64,000 bases of DNA, taken from positions 1-64,000 of the forward strand of contig JASANE010028973.1 of the NCBI GenBank assembly GCA_030248225.1, read 5' to 3'. Shown here piece after piece: positions 1 to 26,688 of this stretch (its first letter is position 1; every line of letters begins with the position of its first letter). The notes beneath the pieces are model-generated. The model searched no databases. It had not been told where the DNA came from and saw only the letters and a program-made list of their open reading frames with translations. The DNA is from Trileptium ribeirensis. Lineage: Eukaryota; Nematoda; Enoplea; Enoplida; Thoracostomopsidae. The translations under genes were made by a program, and so were the position numbers.

Positions 1-711
1 AACTTAAACAATTTTGCGAGCGAGCACGTTGGTGCTTCTGTACAGCGTTGTTGACTGAGTTGCACGTATCTGAGAGCACGCTGGTGCTTCTATGCTTGAG
101 AGCACATTAGTGCTTCATCTGTAATTGAGTATCGAGAGCACATTAGTGCTTCAATTGCATTGTGTCTTGAGAGCACATTGGTGCTTCAGTCGAGTACTTT
201 TGAGAGCACATTAGTGCTTCTGTTCTATTCGGTTGAGAGCACATTGGTGCTCCAGTTTAAGCGCTTATTGAGAGCACACTGGTGCTCCATTTCTGAACCT
301 AGCCTCTGTGGAACTCAGTCTACAGTGTTGTTGCGGGAGCACACTAGTGCTCCGATATAGCGTATACGTGTATTCAATCTAAGGCTAGGACTTGGATCTT
401 ACGATCCCTCTTCTTAACTCAAACAATATTAATATACGTATACGGCTTTGCGAGCGAAAATTTACTAGTGTTTGTGAGTATTTGGTGGTTGTGTGTCATT
501 TATATTATATATTCATATCGCTAAGGATAGGCATTGGATCTTACGATCCCTCTTCTTATCTCAATCTATTTATATATACTTATACATTTATCTCTGTTTG
601 TAGTGTGTCGTGATTGTGTATTGGTAACGTAGTAACGAGCGTTATCTTAGGTCCTGAGTGCTACTTCCCCGGTTAATTAAATCTATTCCCACACTACCGA
701 TTGAGATTACA
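1..711 (+). repeat. 5' LTR, R/U5 portion only (left end outside the window)
   Basis: Base 1 corresponds to 25969 in the 3' LTR, so U3, the TATA box and the splice donor of this copy lie left of the window. It holds nine hairpin repeats (20-353) and a duplicated segment of about 42 bp (380-421 and 522-563) carrying the palindrome GGATCttacGATCC. I end it at TTACA (707-711), which mirrors a TGTAA start at the 3' LTR. The identity with the 3' copy runs 11 bases further, to 722, so the boundary is uncertain by that amount. Confidence 0.85.
20..353 (+). repeat. Array of nine hairpin-forming repeats in the 5' LTR
   Basis: Copies lie at 20-38, 72-90, 98-116, 134-152, 169-187, 202-220, 235-253, 270-288 and 335-353. 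The core is GAGCAC-nnnn-GTGCTY, an inverted repeat that folds into a 6-bp stem with a 4-base loop of pattern R-Y-T-R (ATTA, ATTG, GTTG, GCTG, ACTG, ACTA). Copies 1-6 end in GTGCTT, giving a G-U closing pair, and copies 7-9 in GTGCTC, giving G-C; copy 9 extends the stem by one pair. All nine are unchanged in the 3' LTR. They lie downstream of the LTR splice donor, so the 5' copy would be kept only in unspliced RNA. A packaging or RNA-export role is inference; 16-bp palindromic protein-binding sites in DNA are an alternative. Confidence 0.85.
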
Positions 712-712
712 T

Positions 713-730
713 TGGCTTTATAGTACATTC
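713..730 (+). other. Candidate primer-binding site
   Basis: Retroelement primer-binding sites start with TGG, the complement of tRNA CCA-3', within a few bases of the LTR. TGG occurs at 713-715, two bases after the TTACA end, followed by CTTTATAGTACATTC. I do not recognise the matching tRNA, and the first 11 bases (712-722) also follow the 3' LTR, which is unusual. Confidence 0.3.
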
Positions 731-1020
731 CTTTGCCTTCTCCTTCTTCAAACACACACGTATTTAACACCCAACCCTATCATCAGTTATTTAAGTTCAG
801 CCCAAACATCGTTACACTTGGAGGTCCCACCGAGATCCGATTCTTCATATTCGGGTTAAACGAATTCGGAAAGGATTCACCAGCATTCTTAACCGTAAAT
901 ACCTAGCACATAAATACGGCCGCTTATCAGCTTCGAAGTGCCCAAAATCTCTATAATTTAGAGCTAACGGACGACGAGCAAGATAGTTCTTTCTTTGAAA
1001 CTGATCTGGAAAATCAGCAA
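723..1020 (+). other. Untranslated leader between LTR and Gag start
   Basis: This is about 300 bases with no ORF, leading to the ATG at 1021 (context cagcaaATGG). It is the expected place for dimerisation or packaging signals, but I see no clear repeat in it. Confidence 0.4.
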
Positions 1021-2370
1021 ATGGATAGTTTAGTTAAAAACATCGGCCAACTTGATCATGTCATTAAGGATCTAGCTACTAGATTGGATGATGGCTTAAG
1101 GGATCTTTCTGGCGAAGTCGACGAGGTCTCTCAACGAGTTCGCCTGGGAAACGATGCAGATCTTTCGATCTCACCTTTCCGAGGAGATTTAACTGGTCAA
1201 GATTTCAACTCCTGGTTAGAAAATTTCAACCTCATTTGCGATGCTAAAATAATTGATGACAATATGAAGCTTAGAATGCTGCCCGCATACTTGAGAGACA
1301 GAGCAAGGGATGCGTATGAAAGGGTCCCCGATGCAGCAAAGAGAAACTTTAACGATCTGGTCCGAGCTCTGAGAACCGCCTTATTAACTCCAGAGTGGTC
1401 AATGTTTCATGAAGCAGCACTTGAGCAGCGCCATCAAATGAGTGGTGAGACAGTGACCGCATATCTTAAAGCGATTAAGAAAGCCTGCCGTAGTATATAT
1501 CAGCATGAAAATGATGCTACCTTACAAAGGAAAATCATATCCCGATTCTTTAATGGATTGCGATCACCGGAGATGAAGCAACAAGTATTCCGGGATATGC
1601 CAAACACGCTTAGGGAAGCAGAAGACCTTGCCCAGAAACTGGATATGCAATCTGTTCTTTGTGGAAATGTATCCTCACCAGTCGGTTTAACCAGTGTTAC
1701 TAATAATTTAGCACGGGATCAAACCCTACAAAAAGTAGCACAGGGAATGGAACTGCTAGCAAGGAACCAAAAAGACATAGCAAATACTTTGCAGCGAGTT
1801 AGGAATAACCAACCAAGGAGAAACAACCGCCCACCTGCTGTTAGTACAAATCAAAACCGGTCACCCGAGAACCGACCTCGTCCTAATAACTTTGAGCAAA
1901 ATTTCTCACCTCGCGGACCACGCTGCTTCAATTGCGGTAGATTAGGCCACATGGCAATGGGTTGCTTGCTTAGAGGAAACCAAACTAGGACAAATAATAT
2001 CAGTCGCCCACCAAACAGTGGTTTCCCACCTCGTAATAATTTTTCACAAAATTTTAGGAAACCCCCGGTCAGTACTAACCTCAGACCAAATATCCCCAAC
2101 GTTGGTCACATGGCTAATGCTACTAATACCAGAAACGTTGTCGCAACAACAATGCTCCATCCCGTTCCGAAGGAAGAAGAGCAGAAAAATCCCACCGAAG
2201 TTCCATATAGAACTGAGTTAGAGAAACTTCGCAGAGAAGTGGATGCCCTCACCAAACAGAATTCTTTACTCGTTGAAAAGGCTTACCCACAACTAGTTGG
2301 TGCAATTGAGGTAAAATCTAAATCATATGAGCCAATGAGTATTAAAGCACAAACTGACCCGGCAAAAATA
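1021..2370 (+). other. gag: Gag region of the polyprotein
   Basis: Residues 1 to about 450. The N-terminus (1-45) is predicted helical, followed by a Ty3/gypsy-type capsid region (about 50-210) containing a W-x-x-x-F-N motif and a segment of the retrotransposon Gag type. Residues about 255-345 are rich in Asn, Arg and Pro, as in nucleocapsids, around a single CCHC zinc knuckle (302-315, CFNCGRLGHMAMGC). It packages the RNA and builds the particle. A predicted coiled coil (about 397-420) lies just before the Env signal peptide. Confidence 0.85.
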
Positions 2371-5300
2371 ACCACAATGCCCAATGAGCCAAAGGCCAAA
2401 CTAAGATATGGCCTAACATCAGTTCGTCCACTTTTGGTCCTACTTTCCTTGGTGACGCTTATGGCCCCAGCGCAATCCACAGTAACTCAGGAGCTAAACC
2501 GCTTGCATCCCCATATTTTTCCTTCTTTTGGTGTAGGACTTGTTCCCGAAGGCTTGGTTATGACAGCCCCAGACTCGGTATACTTACCTATACTTGTCCA
2601 CACGAGACATGAACAGCACGAAGCTTGTAAAACTGCGGTAAGATATTCGGTCAACCCTAAGGATTGCAATTGTACAGGTCACCAGTTTTTACATGATCAG
2701 ACGCGGAAAGCACTTAGTGACCTGAGTGAAAATTTTCGCGATTCTGTTGACCCGGCATTTTACGAGGCTCTCTTACAGAGTATATGCACCGACAAACCGT
2801 TTGCCTGTACCTTTGTTCATCCCAAACGACAAAAACGTTTTGTCGCGGTTGCCTTAGCTGGAGTTGCCTCCGTTGCAAGTATAGGTTTGGGAATCGCTAA
2901 CAGCATTCAAATGTCTCATCTTAAGCCTAAACTGATAGCACTGCAGAATTCGGTACGAGTATTTGGGGAACAAACCATCCGCAACGAAGAAGCAATAGCA
3001 CAACTGACCGTTAATCAGGAACGAATATATGCCATCACACACGACATTGTCCGTTATATGGAACAAACATCTGTTGCCTTAGAATGCACACTCATGAAAA
3101 CTGTAGCCTGGACTCACTTTATGGCACAAACTAACTTCTTTGTAAATGATGTTAGGAATGTAGTCCGCGCCATGGTTTTGGCAGGTAATAGCGGAACTCT
3201 GTCGTCAGAAATCTTAACCGCTTCGCAAATAAAATTGTTAGTCCAGCGAGAACCCACATTGCACGACACGATATATTTACATGATCCCAGCCTGTTCTAT
3301 CATTTCGTTAAAGCATACCCAGTAATAATGGATATAATGAACACTAGATTCGGACTCATACTAGAGATCCCCCGCATAAGAGTCAAGAATATTCTACCGC
3401 TTATGAGAGTTGTTAATGTAGGATTCAATAACATAGCCTCTAACACAACTGTGAGATTGTCGCTTCCACAGTTCATTACGTATGATACTGCACTAAATAA
3501 GGGTTACTTTTACGAAGTTAAAGCGGATGGCTGCCACAAAACTCCAGGCCTGTGGTACTGTAACAGAGCGGCATTGCCAACCAGTACCAGTGACAGATGT
3601 TTACATGATTTGAGAAATTCATCAGTGAAAGATTCTTGCACATTTGATATCAAACAGTACTCACCAGAGACAATCATTGAAAGTACAAGAGTTGGTATTC
3701 TGGTCCGCACTTCAGAAAAATTTGTCCATGTAACACGTATTCAACCAGGTAGTAAGGTGACGAATGCTGACAAGCTACCAGTACCTAACCATGGTGTAAT
3801 GTTTTTCGCCCACTCTAACTTTTCGATGATAATTGTAGGAGATCAAGTACTTATGTCCAGTTTTCGCCCAGTACAAGATTTTGAAGTGTTTATGCAGATA
3901 ATTGGAAACTTTTCGTTTAATTTTTCTGAAATAGCCCCACCTACTTGGAGTAAGCTAGAGGATGTGAAGTATCACTCCTCGTTAACCGATCAGCGGTTGA
4001 AACGGGAACTAATGTATCTTACTCATGATGATGATGACTTCCCCGCGGAAGTCATGTATGCTGTGGCTGTGTTGATCCTAGGAATAGTGTTACTGTGTGT
4101 ATTATACGTGTTATGGAGAAAACGGCGTAAACTATTAACATGCTTAGGTAAAAGGAGAAGTTCTGTTAACGCAAGAGGTTTAAATTCTGAAGGGGTCGAA
4201 ATAATAAAAACTCCAAGGGTACAACAAAAAGTTCAAACACACTATGGGGGTGCATGTGCTCGTCCAGCCTCCATCTGCTGTGCTGTTCCACATCATCTCC
4301 CCCCTCCAAATTTAACAGCTACCGTTCCCGATGTTTGTGAGCTTCCATTCTGTCGTGGCAGAGTATCCAATACGAGCAGTAAACAACAAATAAACACACC
4401 CGTGGCCGAAACCGTATTTACGGTGGGTAAAGCTGTATCCCAAATTGATGTCACTATAGAAGGTGAACTATTTACCGGAATCTTAGATACTGGTAGTAAT
4501 ATAACTATAATTTCAAACGAAACATTTGATAAGCTTGGGCTAACGTCCGAAGACCTGGTTCCGGTCCCTTGGACTTCAGCTGTGGGAATAACAGGTCACA
4601 ATTTGCAAATGAAGGGGGCTGTTAAGGTCGCTCTTGGCATTGGAAAACGAACCTTTGATTTTCATGTTTTCGTGACCAATGAGTGTACACATTCTGTAAT
4701 AATAGGTGTTGACGTATTGCGTCAACTTGGCACAGTGACCATCAACTACCAAAAAGAACAAGTAGTAATAGATGGCGTACCTTACCAACTAGGAGGAACC
4801 GATTTCAAAACCCTGCGTTTGGAAACCAATACGACTATTCCAGCGCGAACCGAGGTGGTAATACCCTGTGAGATTGAAGGGTTCAATTACGAGGGTGATG
4901 TTATTTTTGAACCAAGTGAGAAACTGGAGCAATTCGATTTACAGGCAGCCCAAATTCTAATATCAAACGACACGAGAATTACTGTCCCGGTTAGGTTATT
5001 AAACATGTCCTATTATCCTGTTAAGCTATATAAGAATACACCATTAGGCACTGTGGAGCTATTGCAAGATAGCTCAGTGGTCTTTTCGGTACTAACCCAA
5101 AAGTCAGGAGACAGTAATTTCTTGAGTGAGCTTCAACTAGATCAAGTAAAAATAACTCCCGAACAAACGAGACGGTTTGTTGACCTATGTACAGAATATT
5201 CGGAAGTTTTCGCCAAACATGACTATGACTATGGTGACATAACTGTCATACAACATAGTATCGATACTGGCGACGCTGTTCCAATCAAACAGCGGCCTTA

Positions 5301-8190
5301 TCGTATACCTTTCCAACGTAAGGAAAAAGTTGACGCCGAGTTAGATCAAATGTTAAACTTCGGAATTATAGAGCCCTCAACTAGCCCGTGGGCGAGTCCC
5401 ATAGTTTTAGTCGGTAAAAAGGATGGCGAATCTTTACGACTCTGCGTCGATTATAGAAAACTCAATGCTGTAACAAAGAAGGATTGCTACCCTTTACCTA
5501 ACATCAATGACTTGTTAGAATGTATAGGGAAGGCCAGATTTTTTAGTGTGATGGATTTGCTATCGGGATTTTGGCAAATTCCTATGGCCCCAAACTCCGT
5601 TGAGAAAACAGCCTTTATAACACCTTCAGGTTTGTATCAATTTACCAAGATGCCTTTTGGATTGTGTAACGCACCAGCTACATTCCAAAGGACACTTGAG
5701 GCGACTTTACATGGGCTTGTGGAGCGAATATGTTTAATCTATATCGATGATATATGTGTATTTTCCGACACTTTCGAGGAACATCTAAACCGACTTCGGC
5801 AGGTGTTTGAACGCCTAAAACAAGTCGGGTTAAAAGTAAAGCCCAGGAAGTGCAAGTTTTTAAGGGATGAAGTTCCTTATCTAGGTCATATCATTTCGGC
5901 TGAGGGGCTCAGACCAGACCCCGAAAAGATTGAAGCTGTTAAGTCATATCCGGTACCACATGATATTACTTCAGTTCGTAGCTTTCTCGGTTTCTGTAGC
6001 TACTATCGTCGGTTTATTAAGGATTTTGCATCCATAGCAAAACCTTTAAGTCAGCTAACTAGCACACTGAAAAGGTTCGAATGGAATTCGGAAGCTCAAA
6101 AGGCATTCGAGACTTTGAGGGACAAACTAATCAATCCCCCCATCCTTCGAATAGCGGAACCTTCCAAACCATACTTTCTCGAAACAGACGCGAGTACCAA
6201 AGCTATTGGTGGCATTTTGTCGCAAGCAGATGACGACAATAAACTGCATCCTATAGCCTACGGAAGTAGACTGCTACAAAAAGCCGAGCGAAATTATACC
6301 GCTACGGAGTTGGAAGCACTAGCTGTGGTGTACTTTATGAAGTATTTTCGTAATTATATTTATGGCCAGAAGATAACCATAATAACGGATCATTCCGCTT
6401 TAAGATGGTTACTAACGAACAAAAATGCTTCGGGTCGGTTGCAACGTTGGGCCCTATCCCTTACAGAGTTTGACTTTACCGTAGAGCATAGGGCAGGCAA
6501 GAAGATGGGGCATGTAGACGCTCTATCGCGCATGGAAATCAAAGGAGATCAAATTCCAACTAACCATATCACCGAACAAAATAGTGAGGAGGATATAAAT
6601 TTCGCATATGCAGTAACCACATATCGAAATAAAGTACCTAGCGTAGAAAATCCCAAAACTGTGGAGGAGCGTAATCGATTAGAATATATTCATAAGCAGG
6701 ATCAAGACCCTGAAATTAAGGCTTTAAAAATGTATCTTGAATCTGGTAAGCGTCCAGACGACAAGACGCTCGCGGCTCATTTTGCTGCAATACAGCCACG
6801 ATATGTGGTAAAATATGGAGTCCTTTACCATCATTACCCCATGCCAAAATACAAACAAGGCGTCTTACTCGAACAGCTAGTAGTCCCGTTTGCTATGCGG
6901 GAGGAAGTGATGTCGGCCCACCACGACGATGTGGTCGGTGGCAATCACCTGGGTATACTAAAAACTTATAAAAAATTATTTACTAAATATTATTGGGACG
7001 GGATGTACAGAGATGTGGCAAAATGGGTTCAATCCTGTTTAGAGTGCGCCAAGCGAAAGGCGGGACCTCACCGAGGGAAAGCACCTCTGAACCCGATCCC
7101 TGCCACGCGTCCTAATTACACATACCATGTGGATGTGTTGGGTCCCCTACCACAAACTTATAACGGCAATAGATATGTTGTCATATTTATTGATCGTTTT
7201 ACAAAATACCCTGAGGCTATATGCACGCCGGATCAAAAGGCAACCACAATAGCCAAACTTTTTATGACCGAAATTGTGTGTCGTCATTCAGCTCCTCATG
7301 AGCTAGTTAGTGATAATGCTCCAAACTTTCGGAGTGAACTAGTTGAACAAATTTGCCGACTAACTGGCACACGAAAAGTTTTCACAACACCATACCGTCC
7401 TCAAACTAACGGTATCGTTGAAAGAATTAATAGGACACTTATGGAGATGGTGTCTCAGTACGTAGACATGGCACAACGAACTTGGGATGAATTTGTCCCG
7501 TTTGCATGTTTTGCCTATCGAGTAAGTGTGAACGAATCCACAAGCTTGAGTCCGTTTGAAATGGTGTATGGAAGGGTGCCCAGACTCCCCATCGATACGG
7601 TTCTTCCGATTTCAAATATAAACTATTTAGATGAGGAAGACTGTTTTCGGGATATCCAACTGTATTTAAAACGGGCTTGGGAGATAGCGAAGGAGAACAT
7701 CGTCAAGACTCAAGCTCGGATGAAGGAAGTTCACGATCGTAAAGCGACACCTGTAGAGTATTGGGAAGGTCAAAAAGTGCTGCTACATGTTCCCTTTAAC
7801 AAACAAGGAAAGACTAAAAAGTTAGCACAGCCATGGCACGGGATATACGAAATAGAAAAGATTATATCGCCAGATGTAATCCTGAGATCCATAACCAACC
7901 CAAAAGAAGTGCACAAAAGGGTTCACGTTGAGCGTATAAAGCCGTTTTATGGCCCCTACGTCCCACCTTTGTTGTTAAGGGAAATAAAGGAACCACCTCC
8001 GATAGAAGAAGAAGAACCAGCGAAGGCGGAAGATCCTGCTAACGACGAAACACTTCCGAAAATTACAGTGACGGGGCCTGAACAAGATGCTGACAAAACT
8101 GAGGATGCCGCAGGGGAGGTTTCTCCGCAAGAAGCTGCCACGCCAAAACCAACTCATGATTATAATTTAAGGTTGAGAAAAGCTACGTAA
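1021..8190 (+). CDS. Gag-Env-Pol polyprotein (2389 aa), env inserted between gag and protease
   Basis: A single ORF without stop or frameshift encodes all structural and enzymatic parts of the retroelement. Order by residue: Gag with zinc knuckle C302-x2-C305-x4-H310-x4-C315; signal-peptide-like hydrophobic segment 470-485; envelope ectodomain with a basic KRQKR cleavage site (602-606) followed by a hydrophobic fusion-peptide-like stretch; transmembrane segment 1011-1032; retropepsin DTG 1156-1158; reverse transcriptase YIDD 1574-1577; RNase H; integrase with HHCC finger and D2038, D2098, E2134; then an acidic, proline-rich tail. In known retroviruses and errantiviruses env follows pol and is usually made from a spliced RNA. 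Here Env shares the frame with both neighbours. With two membrane crossings, Gag and Pol would both stay cytosolic, so one polyprotein is topologically possible; this is inference. All catalytic signatures I looked for are intact, so the element may be active. Confidence 0.95.
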   Translation: MDSLVKNIGQLDHVIKDLATRLDDGLRDLSGEVDEVSQRVRLGNDADLSISPFRGDLTGQDFNSWLENFNLICDAKIIDDNMKLRMLPAYLRDRARDAYERVPDAAKRNFNDLVRALRTALLTPEWSMFHEAALEQRHQMSGETVTAYLKAIKKACRSIYQHENDATLQRKIISRFFNGLRSPEMKQQVFRDMPNTLREAEDLAQKLDMQSVLCGNVSSPVGLTSVTNNLARDQTLQKVAQGMELLARNQKDIANTLQRVRNNQPRRNNRPPAVSTNQNRSPENRPRPNNFEQNFSPRGPRCFNCGRLGHMAMGCLLRGNQTRTNNISRPPNSGFPPRNNFSQNFRKPPVSTNLRPNIPNVGHMANATNTRNVVATTMLHPVPKEEEQKNPTEVPYRTELEKLRREVDALTKQNSLLVEKAYPQLVGAIEVKSKSYEPMSIKAQTDPAKITTMPNEPKAKLRYGLTSVRPLLVLLSLVTLMAPAQSTVTQELNRLHPHIFPSFGVGLVPEGLVMTAPDSVYLPILVHTRHEQHEACKTAVRYSVNPKDCNCTGHQFLHDQTRKALSDLSENFRDSVDPAFYEALLQSICTDKPFACTFVHPKRQKRFVAVALAGVASVASIGLGIANSIQMSHLKPKLIALQNSVRVFGEQTIRNEEAIAQLTVNQERIYAITHDIVRYMEQTSVALECTLMKTVAWTHFMAQTNFFVNDVRNVVRAMVLAGNSGTLSSEILTASQIKLLVQREPTLHDTIYLHDPSLFYHFVKAYPVIMDIMNTRFGLILEIPRIRVKNILPLMRVVNVGFNNIASNTTVRLSLPQFITYDTALNKGYFYEVKADGCHKTPGLWYCNRAALPTSTSDRCLHDLRNSSVKDSCTFDIKQYSPETIIESTRVGILVRTSEKFVHVTRIQPGSKVTNADKLPVPNHGVMFFAHSNFSMIIVGDQVLMSSFRPVQDFEVFMQIIGNFSFNFSEIAPPTWSKLEDVKYHSSLTDQRLKRELMYLTHDDDDFPAEVMYAVAVLILGIVLLCVLYVLWRKRRKLLTCLGKRRSSVNARGLNSEGVEIIKTPRVQQKVQTHYGGACARPASICCAVPHHLPPPNLTATVPDVCELPFCRGRVSNTSSKQQINTPVAETVFTVGKAVSQIDVTIEGELFTGILDTGSNITIISNETFDKLGLTSEDLVPVPWTSAVGITGHNLQMKGAVKVALGIGKRTFDFHVFVTNECTHSVIIGVDVLRQLGTVTINYQKEQVVIDGVPYQLGGTDFKTLRLETNTTIPARTEVVIPCEIEGFNYEGDVIFEPSEKLEQFDLQAAQILISNDTRITVPVRLLNMSYYPVKLYKNTPLGTVELLQDSSVVFSVLTQKSGDSNFLSELQLDQVKITPEQTRRFVDLCTEYSEVFAKHDYDYGDITVIQHSIDTGDAVPIKQRPYRIPFQRKEKVDAELDQMLNFGIIEPSTSPWASPIVLVGKKDGESLRLCVDYRKLNAVTKKDCYPLPNINDLLECIGKARFFSVMDLLSGFWQIPMAPNSVEKTAFITPSGLYQFTKMPFGLCNAPATFQRTLEATLHGLVERICLIYIDDICVFSDTFEEHLNRLRQVFERLKQVGLKVKPRKCKFLRDEVPYLGHIISAEGLRPDPEKIEAVKSYPVPHDITSVRSFLGFCSYYRRFIKDFASIAKPLSQLTSTLKRFEWNSEAQKAFETLRDKLINPPILRIAEPSKPYFLETDASTKAIGGILSQADDDNKLHPIAYGSRLLQKAERNYTATELEALAVVYFMKYFRNYIYGQKITIITDHSALRWLLTNKNASGRLQRWALSLTEFDFTVEHRAGKKMGHVDALSRMEIKGDQIPTNHITEQNSEEDINFAYAVTTYRNKVPSVENPKTVEERNRLEYIHKQDQDPEIKALKMYLESGKRPDDKTLAAHFAAIQPRYVVKYGVLYHHYPMPKYKQGVLLEQLVVPFAMREEVMSAHHDDVVGGNHLGILKTYKKLFTKYYWDGMYRDVAKWVQSCLECAKRKAGPHRGKAPLNPIPATRPNYTYHVDVLGPLPQTYNGNRYVVIFIDRFTKYPEAICTPDQKATTIAKLFMTEIVCRHSAPHELVSDNAPNFRSELVEQICRLTGTRKVFTTPYRPQTNGIVERINRTLMEMVSQYVDMAQRTWDEFVPFACFAYRVSVNESTSLSPFEMVYGRVPRLPIDTVLPISNINYLDEEDCFRDIQLYLKRAWEIAKENIVKTQARMKEVHDRKATPVEYWEGQKVLLHVPFNKQGKTKKLAQPWHGIYEIEKIISPDVILRSITNPKEVHKRVHVERIKPFYGPYVPPLLLREIKEPPPIEEEEPAKAEDPANDETLPKITVTGPEQDADKTEDAAGEVSPQEAATPKPTHDYNLRLRKAT
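2377..4260 (+). other. env: Envelope glycoprotein region (class I fusion-like) embedded in the polyprotein
   Basis: Residues about 453-1080. In-frame Met439 and Met453 precede a signal peptide (hydrophobic core about 470-485, likely cleavage after AQS, 486). The ectodomain has paired cysteines and several N-x-S/T sequons. KRQKR (602-606) matches a furin-type site and is followed at once by a hydrophobic Ala/Gly/Val-rich segment (607-629) and a heptad-like helix (about 641-682), the layout of class I fusion proteins such as paramyxovirus F. A second basic motif RLKR lies at 992-995. The membrane anchor is 1011-1032, followed by a basic cytoplasmic tail. It resembles a viral entry protein by layout; the source virus family cannot be named from inspection. 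No break was seen. Confidence 0.8.
4408..4740 (+). other. Retropepsin (aspartic protease) region
   Basis: Residues about 1130-1240. The catalytic signature is LDTGSN (1155-1160), and a downstream hydrophobic-hydrophobic-Gly motif IIG (1227-1229) forms the usual second half of the fold. It would cut the polyprotein, including Env from Pol unless another protease does this. It lies about 120 residues after the Env membrane anchor. Confidence 0.85.
5218..6570 (+). other. Reverse transcriptase and RNase H region
   Basis: Residues about 1400-1850. The RT has the Ty3/gypsy fingers motif SPWASPIVLVGKKDG, the primer-grip area TPSGLYQFTKMPFGLCNAPATF and the catalytic YIDD (1574-1577). A connection region with FLGFCSYYRRFI follows. 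RNase H starts near LETDAS (D1723) and includes the TDHSALRWL motif (D1790). It copies element RNA into DNA. All motifs are intact. Confidence 0.92.
6883..7980 (+). other. Integrase region
   Basis: Residues about 1955-2320. The zinc-binding HHCC motif has candidate ligands at H1967/H1968, H1976, C2006 and C2009. The core catalytic triad is D2038, D2098 and E2134, with the canonical 35 residues between the second Asp and Glu. The sequence GIVERINRTLMEM is typical of Ty3/gypsy integrases. I see no obvious chromodomain; the C-terminus (about 2320-2389) is acidic and Pro-rich and ends with a short basic patch. Confidence 0.9.
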
Positions 8191-8888
8191 ATATTACGAG
8201 TTTATTCCGTTTAGTGGTATAATATGGTGCAGGACTATGTTTGGAATGGGCTAAAATTGTTAACTGTGTGTCTGTTGTACTTTCTGGAATAAAGCTTTGA
8301 TGAGTTCGTGTGTTTTGAAACATTTGGTATGAATATTGTAGTCGAAGATCCTACAAACCGTGTGGTAACAAATAATAAACATATATATCATGCTATTTAG
8401 CTAAACAAAATTTTTGTCCTTGTTTATACTCCGGGCCCTAATCGCATTATTAATAAATTATGGTGCTGCAATTTTGTGCCTTATTGATTAAAAAGGTACA
8501 TGATCCCCTTTTGACCCCTGCTAATTTTTGTTCTAGGTTATCTCTTCGGATCGTTTGGTATATTCGTATTGTCGTGGTAACTTGGTCGTGTGGAAATTTG
8601 CGATTACCATAGTTTAATAAATATCTTATATAGCTAATTTACAGAGCTATGTAAACGCCAAGTAACACAGTCTCGAGTTTGCACAGATAAAGTTAATAAG
8701 ATAAAACAACCTTGACAAATAGCTAGTGATAGCGTGATACACTTTTAAGCGTACTGCCTCGTTTTTCTGAGTCCTTTAAGTTAACAGTTAGCTGGAAGTT
8801 TATCCGCGCGCGTTAAAGTTCAACGTCTTTCTAATTGTCCTTGCGGGCACTCTATAAATTACTACAATATTTCATCAGTTTTTTTTGT
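8191..8888 (+). other. Spacer between pol and helicase genes
   Basis: About 700 bases with no ORF. It has AATAAA at 8288-8293 and further AT-rich AATAAA-like motifs to about 8455, which could end a Gag-Env-Pol transcript, though the genomic RNA must read through. Its right end is the pyrimidine-rich tract of a splice acceptor. Confidence 0.5.
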
Positions 8889-8890
8889 AG
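8870..8890 (+). promoter_or_regulatory. Predicted 3' splice site for the helicase mRNA
   Basis: A long T tract (8878-8886) ends in GTAG (8887-8890), 60 bases before the helicase ATG. With the donor in the LTR R region (GTAAGT, 25926-25931 in the 3' copy) this would join a tiny leader to the helicase ORF. This is prediction from consensus only. Confidence 0.5.
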
Positions 8891-8950: not shown

Positions 8951-11900
8951 ATGGAGAACGTGGTTGTGCCGCTTGACACGTCCGCGGCACGTTTCGGTAT
9001 TCCTACGGAGGTGACTGATCTAGTAACCCAGTACCTGACTAACGTCGCTATCGACGGCGCACCGTTTAGTTATGAAACTTTGCAGCATAGTCTCTTCCGC
9101 TACTTGCCATTAGAGGCAATGCTTCCCGAGCTTCGTGAATTAATACTGGCTCCACCGAACGAGGGCGTACCAACAGCACTTTGGAGTGTTATTGAGGCGC
9201 GGTTATCTTACACCGTCCGGCCAACGCATCTGCCTAGTCTGGGTATTTCATTTTGTCCGCTGTGTAAGGTTGACATCATAGATGCTAACCACTTCAGCAG
9301 CCCGACTCATAGTGAAATCGTGGAACTTCAACGTTTTCGCTTTGCACCCGTAGGCCGACTTATATCGGAACACCAGCTGTGGATAACTCGCCACCGTGTA
9401 GGAGCTCGTGTTAAGTTACGGGGCACTCTCAGTAGCGTTACTGTGAGCTTCTGCAGCATAACTAATGGAATTGGCGCCATCACTCGGGAAGCCCAATGGC
9501 ATAACGGGCCCCAAAACTTTCCGGTGATTTGGGGGGTTTCTCCGATGGATACGCGGTCAATAATAATTTTTGAGGCGATCAATCAAGGCGAGAAGCCTGT
9601 CCTTCTGCACGTCCCAGACCTAAGTACGTGCAGTAATTTTTATACCATAGAGTTAGCTCCTTACGGACGACCAAATCGGGCGGTTAGAATATGCCTTCCA
9701 ACCGAGGCTAATCCGGGTTTTCATTACTACGACCTGCACTTTTGGGTTCGCTATGAAAGCGAAACCTTGTTCGCTAAGACCTATAAATTCGCCCCTATTT
9801 GCGCGGCCGTACAGTGGCAATTCAATGACCCTGCTACTGACCAGGAAATATGTACCACACTCAACACTGTCCCAATGAAACAGCGACGGGATCCGTTAGC
9901 ACGTGGTATTGCCTTGCACCCTGATTGCGCCCACGCTCCGCCGCGCCAACCATCAGAAGAGGGCCCCATAAATCGAGTGTGCAAAAATGTTCGCATCACT
10001 GACCCCTCTCTGGCCCCATATTTTGACATCTGGCGGACCATTGGTGATACCAATACCAACACACGGGTTATAAGTGACGAATTGCCGTCTTACCCGGTGC
10101 TGAGCCGAGACTCGGACTCAACACTGGTATCACAAATTCTGGACTGGGCAATTCCATTTAGCGTCAACAATTTTCCGCAAAAAGTGCTCGCTGAGCTCTT
10201 AGGGCAGATACAATACGAAGAAGACGACCCTCCAAAAGCTGTAATCGAAAACCTGTGGGTGACGATCCCAGAGGATCTCTCGTCTTTGGATTGGTCTGAC
10301 TCGCTATGCCCTGGGGACTTAGACGGAGACACTAGCTGCTACCACCTTAGTGCAGAATTAAGTGCCATCAACTTAGCTCGCCTGCGACTACGCACTAAGA
10401 CTGTTCGCCTTATTCAACCCGGCTGGCCATTTAAAATTTTGGCCTACGTAGCAGGACGTAAGGAGATAGGCGACCAGGTAATGCTTATACTTCGCCTCAA
10501 TTCCGGGACAAGACGACTCTTGCTTGACGGAAACACTATCAGGCCTTTGCATCAGCCTATAAGTGTAACTCCTACACTGGGTCCCGCCGTGGAGTACCTA
10601 ATTGCGTTGCTTATGGCCGTAATCTATCAGGACAGTCCGGACGATCCCCAACAGCCACCAGACAACCAGGGAGTTGCTAACGCGGCTGATCCCTGGGATC
10701 CGGGACACAATGGCGGACACGCTTGGCAGGACGAACCAGCATTTGACACGGACGCGGCCCATATTCCTGAAGATCCTGCTCCTGCAGTCGACGATGCATC
10801 TGCCCAGCTTCGACAAGGTCTCGAAGCAATGGATTTAGGCAATGGCCAACCGGACCTAGCAGACCCAGCCGAGCAAATGGACGCAGTCGAGGCTAGAGTG
10901 CTACCGCCAGGCGAACCTGAGGGACCAGCGTCTCGTAGACGACAGTTCCTCCAGATCCATCGTGCAGGGTGGCGTACCGTTTTTGAAATGTTATTCTGTA
11001 GCATTTCTCCACCACTAGCTCCTCCGCTAAACGAAGACCAGTCTGCTTTTGTACGAAACCACCTAGACTGGTTTAATCCTGAGCAGAAAGTAATAACCGA
11101 AGCGTTACTATGTGGTAAGAAGGTTATCCTATGCAAAGCGCCACCTGGGTCGGGCAAGACCTTGTGCATGGCTGAGCTTTCCGCTGCGTATCTAACAGCA
11201 GATCCCAATAAGAAAGTTCTCGTGGTGGCCAGCACTAATGCAGCAACCAACATCTTCGCCCTTCGAGCACGCGAGGCTTTCGAAAAAATATATGGGAACG
11301 AGGTTCCAACTATTGTCCTTCTCCGGTATCTAGCGCGCCACTACGATATCACAGCGTTGGAGCCTAACCTAATTCCGCACTGCTCCGCGCGCGCTGATCC
11401 CAATAGTATGCCTGCTGAGGGACAAATAATATCCAGCGCGGACCTCTTACATTATAAAATGGTCGCCTGCACCCTTGACATGGCAATAATGGACCTGGTA
11501 AACAACCTAGACGCTTACCACCGCGACCCTGGTCATCCCAATTTCGGTGGCAGCAAGTTTGACCTTATAATCGTGGAGGAAGCAGCCTCTGTTGACCTCC
11601 CAAGGCTCTCTGCAATCCTACCGCTAGCGGCTAATGGCCAAATTATCCTAATGGGCGATGTAAAGCAGTTGCCTGCCTATATCACTAACATGCTCCTTAG
11701 GAGAGTGGCTGCCGAGGAATCGGGTATGCAGTTCTTGCTAAACTTGGCCCAAGAGAGGCCTTTCTGTAGCGTTGTGCAGCTGCGGCACAACTATCGTTCA
11801 CGCGCCCAACTTTTGTTACCACCCAACCGCGTTGTGTACGCTGACACACCGCTTGAGGCCGCAGCTCCCGAGTCACTATACGAAATTCATCCCGCTGAAA

Positions 11901-12484
11901 CTGCCGTAGTACCCTGCGGGTCCATTGGCTTCATGCATATCGAAGGCTTCCAAGCCCCGCATGGTAGCAGTTTGTATAACGTCGCAGAAATCACGGGTGT
12001 ATTTCGTATCGCTGACATCCTCATTTGCGACCATGGCGTCGAGCAGGCGTCCATCGGGATAGATGCCACTTATGCCGCTCAGGCAGACATAATAAAGGGT
12101 ATCCTGTCATCTTATTACCCACAAATCAAGGTTGGATGTGCCAACAGCTGGCAGGGCGACGAACGCCCTTACATGATAATATCACTGGTTCGCTCGAATC
12201 CCCTGGTTGATGTCCGTGGTCAACCACATGACCTCGGGTTTTTGAGCGACTATCGTCGTCTGAATGTCACCACCACCCGGGCTCGAAAGCTTAATATCTT
12301 CGTTGGTAACGCCCTTCATTTTCTGCAGCACCCGTTGATACGGGAATCTATCCGCGAATGCTGCACTAATGGCGCCTGGGTTGGTAAGATTGATAGTGGT
12401 GTCAAGCGGTTCATTCACATGCGAGTATGTGAGGCGCAAACGCTTGCGGAACCCGCTGATCAGCGGATCGACGTTCACATGTAG
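8951..12484 (+). CDS. Superfamily 1 (UPF1-like) RNA/DNA helicase encoded by the retroelement (1177 aa)
   Basis: The first ATG (8951) opens an uninterrupted ORF. SF1 motifs run in order: Walker A GSGKT (733-737); motif II IIVEEAA (873-879), with Glu in the place of the usual first Asp; motif III GDVKQLP (902-908); NYRSR (947-951); WQGDE (1067-1071) followed by an IISLVRSN stretch; and TTTRAR (1107-1112). The GDxxQLP, NYRS and LNV-TTRAR pattern fits the UPF1/MOV10/Dna2 group (SF1B, 5'-3'). The N-terminus has a C2H2-like C102-x2-C105-x8-H114-x5-H120 motif. Residues about 565-660 are an acidic, Pro-rich linker. Codons look clearly more GC-rich than the polyprotein and the flanks, which suggests a separate origin. 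Possible roles are countering nonsense-mediated decay, or aiding packaging or reverse transcription of a 30-kb RNA; these are inference. I know of no LTR element with such a gene. Confidence 0.9.
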   Translation: MENVVVPLDTSAARFGIPTEVTDLVTQYLTNVAIDGAPFSYETLQHSLFRYLPLEAMLPELRELILAPPNEGVPTALWSVIEARLSYTVRPTHLPSLGISFCPLCKVDIIDANHFSSPTHSEIVELQRFRFAPVGRLISEHQLWITRHRVGARVKLRGTLSSVTVSFCSITNGIGAITREAQWHNGPQNFPVIWGVSPMDTRSIIIFEAINQGEKPVLLHVPDLSTCSNFYTIELAPYGRPNRAVRICLPTEANPGFHYYDLHFWVRYESETLFAKTYKFAPICAAVQWQFNDPATDQEICTTLNTVPMKQRRDPLARGIALHPDCAHAPPRQPSEEGPINRVCKNVRITDPSLAPYFDIWRTIGDTNTNTRVISDELPSYPVLSRDSDSTLVSQILDWAIPFSVNNFPQKVLAELLGQIQYEEDDPPKAVIENLWVTIPEDLSSLDWSDSLCPGDLDGDTSCYHLSAELSAINLARLRLRTKTVRLIQPGWPFKILAYVAGRKEIGDQVMLILRLNSGTRRLLLDGNTIRPLHQPISVTPTLGPAVEYLIALLMAVIYQDSPDDPQQPPDNQGVANAADPWDPGHNGGHAWQDEPAFDTDAAHIPEDPAPAVDDASAQLRQGLEAMDLGNGQPDLADPAEQMDAVEARVLPPGEPEGPASRRRQFLQIHRAGWRTVFEMLFCSISPPLAPPLNEDQSAFVRNHLDWFNPEQKVITEALLCGKKVILCKAPPGSGKTLCMAELSAAYLTADPNKKVLVVASTNAATNIFALRAREAFEKIYGNEVPTIVLLRYLARHYDITALEPNLIPHCSARADPNSMPAEGQIISSADLLHYKMVACTLDMAIMDLVNNLDAYHRDPGHPNFGGSKFDLIIVEEAASVDLPRLSAILPLAANGQIILMGDVKQLPAYITNMLLRRVAAEESGMQFLLNLAQERPFCSVVQLRHNYRSRAQLLLPPNRVVYADTPLEAAAPESLYEIHPAETAVVPCGSIGFMHIEGFQAPHGSSLYNVAEITGVFRIADILICDHGVEQASIGIDATYAAQADIIKGILSSYYPQIKVGCANSWQGDERPYMIISLVRSNPLVDVRGQPHDLGFLSDYRRLNVTTTRARKLNIFVGNALHFLQHPLIRESIRECCTNGAWVGKIDSGVKRFIHMRVCEAQTLAEPADQRIDVHM

Positions 12485-12756
12485 CGAGCGAGTGGGTTTT
12501 TCTTCGAACTGTTCGGTGGCGATAATCGATCGTTCTTTTTGTTGCTTTTCATTTGACTCCGCCTTATAGCTCCGGAGACACTAATCACATCGTTACTTTG
12601 CACTTATAGCTCAACGTTTGTGTTGTTTGGGTGTTTACATATGTTCTATTACATTACCGTACTATGTTATTTTATTTTTATTATTTTCTTCAGCGCCGTG
12701 GTCAAAAAAAGGGGCTGGATACAATCGCGGTGAGCGTTTTCATCTTATTTTCTACA
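12485..12756 (+). promoter_or_regulatory. Helicase-NADAR spacer with a predicted 3' splice site at 12692-12693
   Basis: This 272-base gap contains a long pyrimidine/AT tract ending in TTCTTCAG (12686-12693), a strong acceptor candidate 63 bases before the NADAR ATG. It mirrors the layout before the helicase gene. Confidence 0.5.
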
Positions 12757-13350
12757 ATGGCCGACCACCGGACCGACGTGGTCCCCTTCTTCACTAAAAA
12801 CAGCGTTTTCTCCAACCACTACCCCATCTCGTTCACCGTCGATGGTGTTCGATACAATTGCACAGAACAGTATTACATGTTTAAGAAAGCCGAGTATTAC
12901 GGCTTTAAAAGTATTGCGAAAATAATACTTAAAAAGGATAAGCCCGCCGTCATGAAACAAATACTTAAAACCACAGAAAGAAAACTTGAAAGAACAACCG
13001 AGGGGGAAGAATTGGTTCGTCTTTGGTCGGAGCAGCGGGTTACGATAATGGAAATAGCTGTAACCAATAAGTTCGATCAAAATGAGCATTTGAAAGAAAT
13101 TCTTCGCAAAACGCACCCCAAAATCTTGGCTGAAGCGAATCCTAGCGATTTGTTTTGGGGTATCGGCCTTTCAAAGCGGGATCCTCGAGTTCAATTCCCG
13201 TCACGCTGGCCAGGTCAAAACGAAATGGGTAAGATCCTGATGCGAGTCAGAGATCGTATTCGTAAACCACTACCGCTCATGTCGATTACCTACGAAGTAG
13301 ATAATGAGCGTCCTGGATCGTCAGGCTGGGACGTCAGACAAATACACTAG
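12757..13350 (+). CDS. NADAR (YbiA-like, DUF1768) family protein encoded by the retroelement (197 aa)
   Basis: The frame is open from 12631 without an ATG before 12664; I choose ATG 12757 because its context (acaATGGcc) is ideal and the protein then has the usual NADAR length. Family motifs are intact: FSNHYPISFTVDGVRYNCTE (18-37) followed by QYYMFKKA (38-45) near the N-terminus, and DLFWGIGL (131-138) with WPGQNEMGKILMRVRDRIR (151-169) near the C-terminus. NADAR proteins act on N-glycosidic bonds of ADP-ribose-like compounds. Bacterial members remove ADP-ribose from guanine in nucleic acids, and YbiA-type enzymes hydrolyse riboflavin precursors. In this element it could remove host-placed ADP-ribose from element nucleic acid, a counter-defence role; that is inference. 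It lies 272 bases after the helicase gene, same strand. I know of no NADAR gene in an LTR retroelement. Confidence 0.88.
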   Translation: MADHRTDVVPFFTKNSVFSNHYPISFTVDGVRYNCTEQYYMFKKAEYYGFKSIAKIILKKDKPAVMKQILKTTERKLERTTEGEELVRLWSEQRVTIMEIAVTNKFDQNEHLKEILRKTHPKILAEANPSDLFWGIGLSKRDPRVQFPSRWPGQNEMGKILMRVRDRIRKPLPLMSITYEVDNERPGSSGWDVRQIH

Positions 13351-16300: not shown

Positions 16301-16796
16301 TTATTACGGTCTTTAGCCCAATATTTTATATAGTCTTCGTCAACAGACTGCAATGTGCTAATTTATAGTCCTATAAAAAGAGTTTTTGTCTGTTGAACGT
16401 TTTCATATTGTCACGTCACATGCTGACGCCCTACGCTCGATTTGTGTTAACTTGTGTATGATTGACGCCAACAATATACCAGATATGTTATATAACCACA
16501 TTTAGCTTTAAGGTTTATGACTGATACTACATGTTCTTTGTTGAGGCAACCGAAACACTTGTAGCATATTATAACAGGAAACACTAAGTTCTGGCATAAA
16601 AGGAATTAGCTATTTTCTCGTGGGGCAGGCGAGAACATGATTTAAGTTCAACAAGTTTCCTAAATTATCGTTTTGCCCTCACACATTGTATTCTAACTGG
16701 CTCGCAGGAGCTTCGCCTTGAAATGCTGAAGTGGTGTGACAGGAGCACGTGTGGTTTGTTTTTGACAATTTGACTAATCCACAATCTTATACTGGT
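13351..16796 (+). other. Long non-coding internal region with diverged repeats
   Basis: AT-rich, with no convincing ORF. Two colinear stretches, about 14225-14445 and 14850-15055, share blocks such as CCAAAAATACGGTG, TTATTGCCAC and GAGGCCTTG with similar spacing, so they look like an old duplication of period about 620 bp. A fragment near 16405-16460 (CTCGATTTGTGT) looks like a third copy. No RNA gene was recognised. Confidence 0.5.
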
Positions 16797-16814
16797 TTCA
16801 CTGGCTATTTTCAG

Positions 16815-22469: not shown

Positions 22470-22483
22470 AGAGAAAAAGGGGG
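22470..22483 (+). other. Polypurine tract (plus-strand primer site)
   Basis: AGAGAAAAAGGGGG is a 14-base all-purine run of retroviral type, followed by TTGTAA. It marks the likely start of the 3' LTR at TG 22485. TGTAA here mirrors TTACA at the LTR end, the expected short inverted repeat. It can be confirmed only by the missing left end of the 5' LTR. Confidence 0.6.
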
Positions 22484-25400: not shown

Positions 25401-25868
25401 GTGCGCAGGTATATGTGTACGTATTTCGAACGATGTTTTATTTTTTTATTTATTTCAAACTCATAAAAATTTAGTTTTGTTTTTTTACTTCTAGGAACTC
25501 ATTTCTAAGAATCGTTTTAAAAATAGACCACTACATGTGGTCGTCAACATCAAAAAATATTAAAATTTTATCGCGAGAGCGTGGCACATTCTGACCCTTA
25601 AAATAAGTTTATTAAATGTCAAAAGAGTTGGGTATGAATTTCGGCAAACTTGCTTGAAACTTTTTATTGCGCCTCAAGCTCGTAAACATCAAAAAATACA
25701 AATATTGAAGTTCGTGGTAGGCATTTAAAATTACTTTGCAGGTTCCGACAACTAAGATCAAGAAACGTTTCATATATTCTAAAAATAAATAACTGGGATG
25801 TAGCAATATTCCGCAAAATTCTGAGAATAACACCCAGTGATCTGGAGTTTCCTAGACGGCTCGGTAGG

Positions 25869-25906
25869 TATAAAAGATTACGTCAGGCATTCATCGGCCC
25901 TCAGTC
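25869..25906 (+). promoter_or_regulatory. LTR core promoter: TATA box and initiator
   Basis: TATAAAAG (25869-25876) lies about 32 bases before TCAGTC (25901-25906), whose A at 25903 is at the right distance for the start site and matches the invertebrate initiator TCAGT. It would drive the genomic RNA from the 5' LTR copy, which is outside the window. Confidence 0.65.
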
Positions 25907-25925
25907 TCAAAGTGCCTAACTACTG

Positions 25926-25931
25926 GTAAGT
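25926..25931 (+). promoter_or_regulatory. 5' splice donor in the LTR R region
   Basis: CTG/GTAAGT is a near-perfect donor, only about 23 bases after the predicted transcription start. A donor so early in R recalls foamy viruses, where the major donor lies in R. Joined to acceptors at 8890 and 12693 it would make short-leader mRNAs for helicase and NADAR. Confidence 0.5.
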
Positions 25932-25987
25932 GTTCACTTTATTCTTACGACCAAGCGGTCTCCTTTATAACTTAAACAATTTTGCGA

Positions 25988-26321
25988 GCGAGCACGTTGG
26001 TGCTTCTGTACAGCGTTGTTGACTGAGTTGCACGTATCTGAGAGCACGCTGGTGCTTCTATGCTTGAGAGCACATTAGTGCTTCATCTGTAATTGAGTAT
26101 CGAGAGCACATTAGTGCTTCAATTGCATTGTGTCTTGAGAGCACATTGGTGCTTCAGTCGAGTACTTTTGAGAGCACATTAGTGCTTCTGTTCTATTCGG
26201 TTGAGAGCACATTGGTGCTCCAGTTTAAGCGCTTATTGAGAGCACACTGGTGCTCCATTTCTGAACCTAGCCTCTGTGGAACTCAGTCTACAGTGTTGTT
26301 GCGGGAGCACACTAGTGCTCC
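25988..26321 (+). repeat. Hairpin repeat array in the 3' LTR
   Basis: The nine repeats of the 5' LTR recur here at an offset of 25968 bases with no differences. The GGATCttacGATCC palindromes recur at 26362-26375 and 26502-26515. Confidence 0.85.
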
Positions 26322-26688
26322 GATATAGCGTATACGTGTATTCAATCTAAGGCTAGGACTTGGATCTTACGATCCCTCTTCTTAACGCAAACAATATTGA
26401 TACGTATACGGCTTTGCGAGCGAAAATTTACTAGTGTTTGTGAGTATTTGGTGCTTGTGTGTCATTTATATTATATATTCATATCGCTAAGGATAGGCAT
26501 TGGATCTTACGATCCCTCTTCTTATCTCAATCTATTTATCTATACTTATACATTTATCTCTGTTTGTAGTGTGTCGTGATTGTGTATTGGTAACGTAGTA
26601 ACGAGCGTTATCTTAGGTCCTGAGTGCTACTTCCCCGGTTAATTAAATCTATTCCCACGCTACCGATTGAGATTACATTGGCTTTATA

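What the first reader, a model, noticed from the sequence alone, without database searches (positions are those of the whole stretch)
1021..8190. Envelope gene sits inside the gag-pol frame: Gag-Env-PR-RT-RH-IN in one ORF
The 2389-codon ORF has no stop, and Env features (signal peptide about 470-485, basic KRQKR at 602-606, fusion-peptide-like segment, anchor 1011-1032) lie between the Gag zinc knuckle (302-315) and the protease DTG (1156-1158). Known env-bearing LTR elements carry env after integrase. I know of no element with this order.
Basis: partly seen in the sequence, partly recalled or inferred. Interest (0 to 1): 0.95.

Follow-up and report, generated by a model that had tools for sequence, protein, structure and literature searches.

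The report
Retroelement with envelope inside Gag-Pol

Summary
In detail: one 2389-codon ORF reads Gag, Env, protease, RT, RNase H, integrase. It is not an accident of one copy: the same genome holds at least 70 env matches; 14 lie in open frames of 2279 codons or more, in families 63-100% identical to the window's Env, and env is under strong purifying selection (median dN/dS 0.072). The Env looks like a class I, F-type fusion protein (Fusion_gly E 3.5e-7 in a sister family, but only 0.009-0.014 in the window's copy and none in the most distant family). Elements from public data carry other glycoproteins in the same slot, one of Monjiviricetes type (E 1.6e-17), suggesting an exchangeable cassette. 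Best reading: a new branch of env-carrying Ty3/Gypsy elements that makes Gag, Env and Pol as one membrane-threading polyprotein. Order, conservation and homologies are shown; expression, processing and infectivity are inferred. No paper found here describes the order, but a relevant 2025 survey of env-carrying elements was not available.

The parts
1..816 (+). 3' part of the 5' LTR (the contig begins inside it); ends ...GTTACA, 2 nt before the primer binding site
   Evidence: direct repeat with 25969-26688, 715/722 identical; LTR end by comparison with five other copies
23..351 (+). nine AGCAC-N4-GTGCT stem-loops in the leader
   Evidence: RNA fold of 20-360 has z-score -6.8
819..840 (+). primer binding site TGGAGGTCCCACCGAGATCCGA; complementary to the 3' end of animal tRNA-Gln (tRNA identity recalled, not searched)
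   Evidence: its first 17 bases are kept in five other copies
1021..2376 (+). Gag part of the polyprotein, residues 1-452
   Evidence: conserved in the genome
1924..1965 (+). zinc knuckle, residues 302-315
2212..2307 (+). coiled-coil-like junction between nucleocapsid and Env, residues 398-429; weakly similar to the same place in P0040 and P0051
   Evidence: BLASTP E 0.019 and 0.006 in a comparison of six sequences
2410..2478 (+). Env signal peptide, about residues 464-486
   Evidence: hydropathy; a hydrophobic stretch is kept there although its sequence differs
2479..4059 (+). Env ectodomain, about residues 487-1013, class I F-like; its 10 cysteines are invariant in 13 aligned copies
2824..2838 (+). 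furin-type site KRQKR, residues 602-606 (R-x-K-R-F invariant in 13 of 13)
2839..2895 (+). fusion-peptide-like segment, residues 607-625
4060..4116 (+). membrane anchor, residues 1014-1032
4444..4731 (+). aspartic protease, residues 1142-1237
   Evidence: RVP 8e-8, Asp_protease_2 5e-8
5416..5895 (+). reverse transcriptase, residues 1466-1625
6082..6471 (+). RNase H, residues 1688-1817
   Evidence: 1.7e-38
6883..7401 (+). integrase, residues 1955-2127
   Evidence: Integrase_H2C2 4.9e-19, rve 8.9e-13
8873..8890 (+). candidate splice acceptor before the helicase ORF
   Evidence: consensus score only
8951..12484 (+). SF1 helicase ORF (1177 aa from its first ATG), UPF1/IGHMBP2/DNA2-like
   Evidence: AAA_12 2.4e-27, IGHMBP2-family model 1.8e-29, below its cut-off, PDB relatives; downstream of env on the same strand in 15 of 15 contigs found to hold both
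12676..12693 (+). candidate splice acceptor before the NADAR ORF; acceptor-like sites precede NADAR in the other families too
   Evidence: consensus score only
12757..13350 (+). NADAR / YbiA-like N-glycosidase ORF, 197 aa
   Evidence: NADAR 7e-38; TIGR02464 1.8e-40, above its cut-off
25817..26688 (+). second LTR copy, incomplete: stops 94 bp short of the LTR's end, and may lack more at its start; TATAAAAG at 25869, splice donor CTG|GTAAGTG at 25926

Best explanation
A probably recently active, envelope-carrying Ty3/Gypsy (Metaviridae-like) retroelement family in which env has been captured inside gag-pol, between nucleocapsid and protease, in frame. Its unspliced LTR transcript is read as one Gag-Env-PR-RT-RH-IN chain. 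The internal signal peptide threads the Env ectodomain into the ER while Gag, the Env tail and Pol stay in the cytosol; signal peptidase, furin and the element's own protease then cut it (compare the C-prM-E-NS polyprotein of flaviviruses, recalled). The Env is a class I F-like fusion protein, so particles should bud with a fusogen and could pass between cells or hosts. The family also encodes a UPF1-like helicase and a NADAR protein, probably expressed from RNAs spliced from a donor in the LTR. Shown: order, frame, conservation, selection, homologies, LTR/PBS/TSD in a related copy. Inferred: topology, processing, budding, entry, the roles of helicase and NADAR.
For: ORF and domains; same order and frame in 19 of 21 genomic loci examined, the window included; 14 of 70 env matches in frames of at least 2279 codons, in families 63-100% identical to the window's Env; env dN/dS median 0.072, maximum 0.136, in 54 of 210 pairs with usable dS, beside gag 0.016 (35 of 171) and PR 0.139 (82 of 190, some with dS above 2); furin site and ectodomain cysteines invariant in 13 of 13; Fusion_gly 3.5e-7, 2.8e-6 and 2.9e-6 in three copies of sister families, and all 8 PDB chains reached at E up to 10 are F glycoproteins, best 0.12, not significant alone; no frame-preserving splice pair that would remove env in 8 of 8 loci tested with a simple score; independent elements with an Env-like segment in the same slot: P0040 and P0051 with PF24664 at 1.6e-17 and 1.8e-17, P0073, P0094 and P0043 with signal peptide and anchor; helicase 4.5-5.6 kb behind the env match on the same strand in 15 of 15 contigs holding both; NADAR behind it in the 4 fetched downstream loci that have the helicase, of 5 fetched; TATA motif and donor 57-58 nt apart in 7 of 9 LTR copies scanned.
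Against: The window's own Env scores only 0.009-0.014 against Fusion_gly (0.17 without the part before the cleavage site; none for smaller pieces), the most distant family does not match at 0.1, and no match reaches Pfam's cut-off. No reliable fold. A 1:1:1 yield of Gag, Env and Pol would be odd for a particle that needs far more Gag than Pol. No RNA or protein data. A separate spliced env mRNA is not excluded: weak acceptors lie upstream of the signal peptide, though not at one conserved place. In the Pol tree the env-bearing elements are not one clade (p-AU 0.045), so gain and loss of env are unresolved.
Confidence: 0.72

Rival explanations
1. The order is real but Env is made from its own spliced RNA (leader donor to an acceptor in 3' gag), giving Env or Env-Pol; the long ORF is mainly a way to fuse Env to Pol.
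For: A strong leader donor exists in the LTR; env of insect errantiviruses is made from a spliced RNA (PMC12992720, passages); weak acceptors lie upstream of the signal peptide in each of the four families scored.
Against: Those acceptors are not at the same place in the four families, and in copies of three families no stop or frame change separates Env from Gag or Pol (open frames of 2416-2465).
Confidence: 0.3
2. The segment 453-1080 is not a viral Env but an unrelated membrane protein caught by the element.
For: Weak Pfam score in the window's own copy; no homologue at E 0.001 among the roughly 8000 candidates scored in each of two protein searches.
Against: Fusion_gly 3.5e-7 in a sister family; conserved furin site, fusion-peptide-like segment and anchor; a known type of viral glycoprotein in the same slot in P0040 and P0051.
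Confidence: 0.06
3. Gag-Env-Pol is one element, but helicase, NADAR and the second LTR 26 kb away belong to other insertions or to chimeric contigs.
For: The second LTR copy in the window is incomplete; the non-coding stretch before it is not shared with other copies apart from 69 bp; LTR pairs of C11945 and C16223 are only 85-86% alike beside intact ORFs; C8298 has a 99.4% LTR pair without the helicase.
Against: Helicase and NADAR follow pol in four families at a similar distance; C9306 is a 33,153 bp copy with TG...CA LTRs and GTAT on both sides that encloses both genes. For helicase and NADAR the rival is nearly excluded; for the window's own length it stands.
Confidence: 0.2

Closest known systems
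Insect errantiviruses (gypsy, ZAM) and other env-carrying Metaviridae
   Same: Ty3/Gypsy-type Gag and Pol; captured F-type Env with signal peptide, furin site, fusion peptide and anchor (PMC12992720, passages)
   Different: There env is a third ORF made from a spliced RNA; here it sits between Gag and PR in the same frame. Helicase or NADAR genes were not met in the passages read.
TelKA of bdelloid rotifers
   Same: Env of paramyxovirus F type (PF00523) with furin site, fusion peptide, coiled coil and anchor (PMC5408684, passages)
   Different: TelKA env is ORF3, downstream of pol; TelKA has a dUTPase between PR and RT
Hookworm Atlas virus (Belpaoviridae)
   Same: Env is part of one unbroken polyprotein (PMC9094657, passages)
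   Different: Order there is Gag-Pol-Env; phlebovirus-like class II Env; BEL/Pao Pol; 9.2 kb
Cer1 of C. elegans
   Same: Large Gag-Pol message that has to skip splicing, and a spliced RNA for an extra protein (PMC10309623, PMC3315495, passages)
   Different: No Env recognised; the extra ORF (part of CERV) lies after pol and serves RNA export
Anakin (mosquito BEL/Pao with a chuvirus glycoprotein)
   Same: Capture of a chuvirus-type glycoprotein by an LTR element (PMC7642597, passages), compare P0040 and P0051
   Different: BEL/Pao, not Ty3/Gypsy; the figure legend lists the glycoprotein after integrase
Giant LTR elements Ogre (plants) and Burro (planarians)
   Same: Tens of kilobases, multi-kb LTRs (recalled; a search for Burro, listed nothing on it)
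   Different: As far as recalled, no Env between Gag and Pol and no helicase plus NADAR pair
Flavivirus polyprotein
   Same: Works like: capsid, internal signal, envelope ectodomain in the lumen, protease and polymerase in the cytosol (recalled)
   Different: No kinship claimed; analogy of topology only

Membership tests
Ty3/Gypsy (Metaviridae) | PR-RT-RH-IN order of Pol with Gypsy-type domains | tested here: met
   among the 120 listed relatives in PR-RT several are named Ty3, 297 or 412 type
Ty3/Gypsy (Metaviridae) | LTRs with TG...CA ends, primer site next to the LTR, 4-6 bp target duplication | tested here: met
   met in copy C9306: TG...CA, GTAT on both sides, PBS 2 nt inside. In the window the 5' LTR start lies outside the contig and the 3' copy is incomplete, so not testable there
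Ty3/Gypsy (Metaviridae) | Gag and Pol adjacent, env (if any) after pol | tested here: not met
   env between Gag and PR; read as a variant arrangement, so the filing under Ty3/Gypsy rests on Pol and LTRs only
Errantivirus | env as third ORF after pol | tested here: not met
Errantivirus | baculovirus-type F (Baculo_F) | tested here: not met
   Fusion_gly is the only viral fusion family that Pfam reports for these Envs at E up to 1
Errantivirus | env made from a spliced RNA | not testable with these tools
   no RNA data; only consensus scores
Class I viral fusion glycoprotein, F type | sequence homology to Fusion_gly | tested here: inconclusive
   3.5e-7 at 29.3 bits against a cut-off of 29.8 in a sister family; 0.0091-0.014 in the window copy; none in the most distant family
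Class I viral fusion glycoprotein, F type | signal peptide, basic cleavage site followed directly by a hydrophobic fusion peptide, C-terminal anchor | tested here: met
Class I viral fusion glycoprotein, F type | trimeric helical fusion core | tested here: inconclusive
   single-sequence model too poor
UPF1/IGHMBP2-type SF1 helicase | SF1 helicase domains | tested here: met
   AAA_11 and AAA_12 above their cut-offs; PDB relatives DNA2, UPF1, SMUBP-2; NCBIfam IGHMBP2 model matched far below its own cut-off, so not an equivalog
NADAR / YbiA N-glycosidase | curated family score | tested here: met
   PF08719 130.9 bits (cut-off 35.1); TIGR02464 138.7 bits (cut-off 73.7)

The most novel reading that the evidence does not exclude
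A separate group of giant virus-like retroelements (about 20-33 kb) that makes Gag, Env and Pol as one membrane-threading polyprotein, uses the place between nucleocapsid and protease as a docking slot into which fusion proteins of different classes (class I F-like, Monjiviricetes-type) have been swapped, and has added a UPF1-like helicase and a NADAR glycohydrolase, which could shield a huge RNA with a very long 3' tail from decay and undo host ADP-ribosylation: a retroelement that converged on the polyprotein and helicase plan of large plus-strand RNA viruses.
Probability: 0.45. Interest if true: 0.95.

Novelty: new variant of a known kind. Interest (0 to 1): 0.87.

Why it matters
Env capture is one way in which retrotransposons become infectious, and in the env-carrying elements read about here env follows pol. 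A lineage with env inside gag-pol, kept by selection, and with different fusion proteins in the same place in other elements, means that the order is not fixed, raises a testable question (how a particle copes with Gag, Env and Pol made from one chain), and is a reason to look between Gag and PR when annotating elements. The helicase and NADAR genes may tie element size to functions also used by large RNA viruses.

Tried and rejected
Env removed by splicing as an in-frame intron: no frame-preserving donor/acceptor pair in 8 of 8 loci. Polypurine tract at 21578 as the 3' LTR border in the window: no other copy supports it, so not used. tRNA and Rfam scans of the window: 0 genes, 0 families. IMG/VR scans with Env, NADAR, helicase, an RT piece, P0040 and P0073, and a GTDB scan with P0094: no relative confirmed. 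Protein searches with the Env: none at E 0.001 among 7997 and 7995 scored candidates. PDB by single sequence: none. AlphaFold without alignment: mean pLDDT 37, pTM 0.24, not used for a fold search. Window Env against the segments of P0040/P0051 and of P0073/P0094/P0043 by profile: no similarity (E 0.21 and 0.86); P0040/P0051 against the P0073 set E 0.005, ten column shuffles 0.17-0.84, so a class III origin of the P0073 set is only a hint. Env-bearing elements as one clade: p-AU 0.045; the window with the P0073 group alone 0.238; wider sets that include Env-less relatives 0.37 and 0.396. The NADAR search of the whole genome did not complete, so NADAR was checked only in fetched loci. Whether this genome also holds close relatives without env was not tested. 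The organism could not be named.

Full report
What is there. The ORF at 1021-8190 is open for 2389 codons. [quoted passage not shown] Between the knuckle (302-315) and the protease DTG (1156-1158) lie a signal peptide, KRQKR at 602-606, a hydrophobic segment directly behind it, and an anchor; these three hydrophobic stretches are the strongest in residues 1-1160. GC by codon position is alike in the Gag, Env ectodomain and Pol parts. Sequon density is not above chance.

Other copies in the genome. The window is the start of contig C19050 of a 687 Mb assembly without a name. The Env segment has 70 match rows there, in 64 contigs, a lower bound because 68 of 2149 first-look candidates were scored. 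Of the 70, 48 have no stop inside; of the 43 that are 1700 nt or longer, 37 have none; 14 of 70 lie in open frames of at least 2279 codons, in families 98-100%, 72-76% and 63-64% identical. Of 21 loci examined, one of them the window itself, 19 have gag, env, PR and RT in the same reading frame; L007 begins inside env at a contig end and L008 is frameshifted. Pairwise dN/dS of env is low: median 0.072, maximum 0.136, over 54 of 210 pairs with usable dS; gag 0.016 (35 of 171); PR 0.139 (82 of 190, some with dS above 2 and so rough); in the other pairs dS is under 0.05 or saturated. The furin site and all ten ectodomain cysteines are invariant in 13 of 13 aligned copies. Env is thus a maintained protein, not a passenger.

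What the Env is. The window's own copy matches Pfam Fusion_gly only at 0.0091-0.014, at 0.17 without the part before the cleavage site, and smaller pieces do not match. Of 13 copies 7 match at E up to 1, the best at 3.5e-7 (29.3 bits, cut-off 29.8), two more at about 3e-6; four copies of the most distant family (L013, L014, L016, L020) do not match at 0.1. A profile of the 13 copies reaches 8 PDB chains at E up to 10, all F glycoproteins, best 0.12: weak alone, but the alignments span the cleavage site, the fusion peptide and the helix behind it. Together with the anatomy this makes a class I F-like fusion protein the best reading. The fold itself was not obtained.

The same slot elsewhere. 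A search with protease and RT gave 5861 proteins at E 1e-20 among 7962 scored, of which the best 120 were listed. A coarse motif and hydropathy scan of the 120, Pfam scans of 14 of them and reading of the segments showed five with a signal peptide, an ectodomain-sized stretch and an anchor before the protease. P0040 and P0051 carry Pfam Monjiviricetes_fusion (1.6e-17, 1.8e-17) at 737-892 and 741-898, between knuckle (335, 322) and protease (from 1070, 1083). P0073, P0094 and the N-truncated P0043 carry another glycoprotein-like segment, without a Pfam match but related among themselves (BLASTP E 1e-48 or better), and only hinting at kinship with P0040 (hhalign 0.005 against 0.17-0.84 in ten column shuffles). 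No knuckle motif was found in P0094. Neither set resembles the window's Env. The stretch just before the signal peptide is weakly shared with P0040 and P0051 (E 0.019 and 0.006 in a comparison of six sequences). Close relatives without Env exist: P0097, P0103, P0107 and P0108 have only about 95-150 residues between knuckle and protease. In the careful Pol tree of 30 rows the window falls with the P0073 group and that Env-less group (88/91), P0040 and P0051 are unresolved, and one clade of all env-bearers is borderline rejected (p-AU 0.045). Repeated capture into one slot, or an old slot with swaps and losses, both fit.

Downstream on the same strand lie a 1177-aa SF1 helicase (AAA_12 2.4e-27; PDB relatives DNA2, UPF1 and SMUBP-2) and a 197-aa NADAR protein (7e-38; TIGR02464 1.8e-40). 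The helicase search gave 52 match rows in 39 contigs, again a lower bound; 15 contigs also hold env, and in 15 of 15 the helicase is on the same strand, its match 4.5-5.6 kb behind the env match. Of five downstream loci fetched, four hold helicase and NADAR (C8969 has two NADAR copies) and one, C8298, neither. In these four the helicase is 40-95% identical to the window's, so it was probably there before the families split.

LTRs and size. Window 1-722 recurs at 25969-26688 with 715/722 identities. The LTR ends at 816, two bases before the primer site TGGAGGTCCCACCGAGATCCGA, which I recall as matching animal tRNA-Gln. Copy C9306 has both LTRs, 17880-26218 and 41633-51032 (the second longer by about 1.1 kb), TG...CA, GTAT on both sides, 33,153 bp in all; the duplication could be read as longer because the flank goes on like the LTR start, and its helicase is frameshifted. 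Second LTR copies lie 22.3 kb (C8969, 93%), 22.6 kb (C16223, 85%), 20.8 kb (C11945, 86%) and 13.7 kb (C8298, 99.4%) along; none was found in the stretches fetched of C6631, which left a gap. Against a simple picture: the window's second copy lacks the last 94 bp of the LTR and also shows no match to a further 362 bp that C11945 and C13218 share upstream (82%); the non-coding stretch before it shares only 69 bp with C11945 and nothing with the other copies compared; and LTR pairs of 85-86% beside intact ORFs point to recombination or chimeric contigs. The window's own length is therefore uncertain; that the family can be very large is supported by C9306. In 7 of 9 LTR copies scanned a TATA motif is followed 57-58 nt later by a splice-donor-like site; C11945's second copy and C16223's gave none. 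Acceptor-like sites precede NADAR in the four families scored, strong in three, weak in C16223; those before the helicase are weaker.

How it most likely works. The unspliced RNA gives one chain. [quoted passage not shown] signal peptidase and furin cut on one side, the element's protease on the other. This is inferred from topology. It explains why Env has kept frame with both neighbours, why no splice pair that would remove it was found (8 of 8 loci), and why a signal peptide and anchor bracket the segment. Helicase and NADAR would come from RNAs spliced from the LTR donor. Their roles are guesses: protection of a long RNA with a long 3' tail from UPF1-dependent decay, or help in copying it; removal of ADP-ribose marks set by the host.

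Against the known. In the papers seen, env of LTR elements follows pol: errantiviruses, where it is a third ORF from a spliced RNA (PMC12992720, passages), TelKA (PMC5408684, passages), Atlas virus, one Gag-Pol-Env chain (PMC9094657, passages), Anakin by its figure legend, and Roo, Tas and Cer-7 as cited there (PMC7642597, passages). Cer1 has no recognised Env (PMC10309623, PMC3315495, passages). Troyka lacks Env (PMC12440569, outline and passages). The passages seen of a review of retrovirus origins name no such order (PMC5962544). Searches for 'between gag and pol' with envelope and retrotransposon (15 papers), 'gag-env-pol' with retrotransposon (none), and NADAR with retrotransposon (104 papers, 10 listed) gave no listing that describes this (judged from the listings only, except PMC10309623). 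Chary and Hayashi 2025, which surveyed env-carrying elements of metazoans, is cited in PMC13172572 (passages) but is not held; it may describe such orders.

Verdict. Observation confirmed, interpretation supported and extended. A new variant of env-carrying Ty3/Gypsy elements, with an order not reported as far as could be searched.

Noticed in passing
window 23-351: Nine AGCAC-N4-GTGCT stem-loops in a row in the LTR leader (RNA fold z-score -6.8), plus GGATCTTACGATCC at 394 and 536; possibly packaging or export signals.
   Followed up: partly
window 13400-25816 and the matching stretches of C11945, C8298, C8969, C16223: The long AT-rich non-coding stretch before the 3' LTR is almost wholly unalignable between copies, even between the window and C11945 whose proteins are about 95% alike or more.
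   Followed up: partly
L024 (C8969) 4543-5962: Two NADAR genes in tandem in one family, the second more diverged.
   Followed up: no
L023 (C8298:8200-13800): A copy with a 99.4% LTR pair but no helicase or NADAR match: a deletion derivative or a simpler form.
   Followed up: no
protein P0061, about residues 740-850: Hydrophobic stretch, short gap, second hydrophobic stretch between knuckle and protease: by eye like an Env-slot remnant in an element near the window's in the first tree.
   Followed up: no
protein P0094: Listed at NCBI as a gammaproteobacterial MAG protein although it is a eukaryote-type polyprotein: probable contamination of the MAG.
   Followed up: no
window 27084-27887, - strand: ORF of 267 aa whose text resembles the endonuclease end of Penelope-like elements (from memory; no Pfam match).
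   Followed up: partly
window 50808-51480: Inverted repeat with arms 97-98% alike: a foldback or MITE-like element.
   Followed up: no
contig starts of C19050, C11945, C8298, C8969, C16223: Many contigs carrying this family begin near or inside its LTR: 33 of 70 env matches lie on the + strand within 3.6 kb of a contig start, so the assembly seems to break at these repeats.
   Followed up: no
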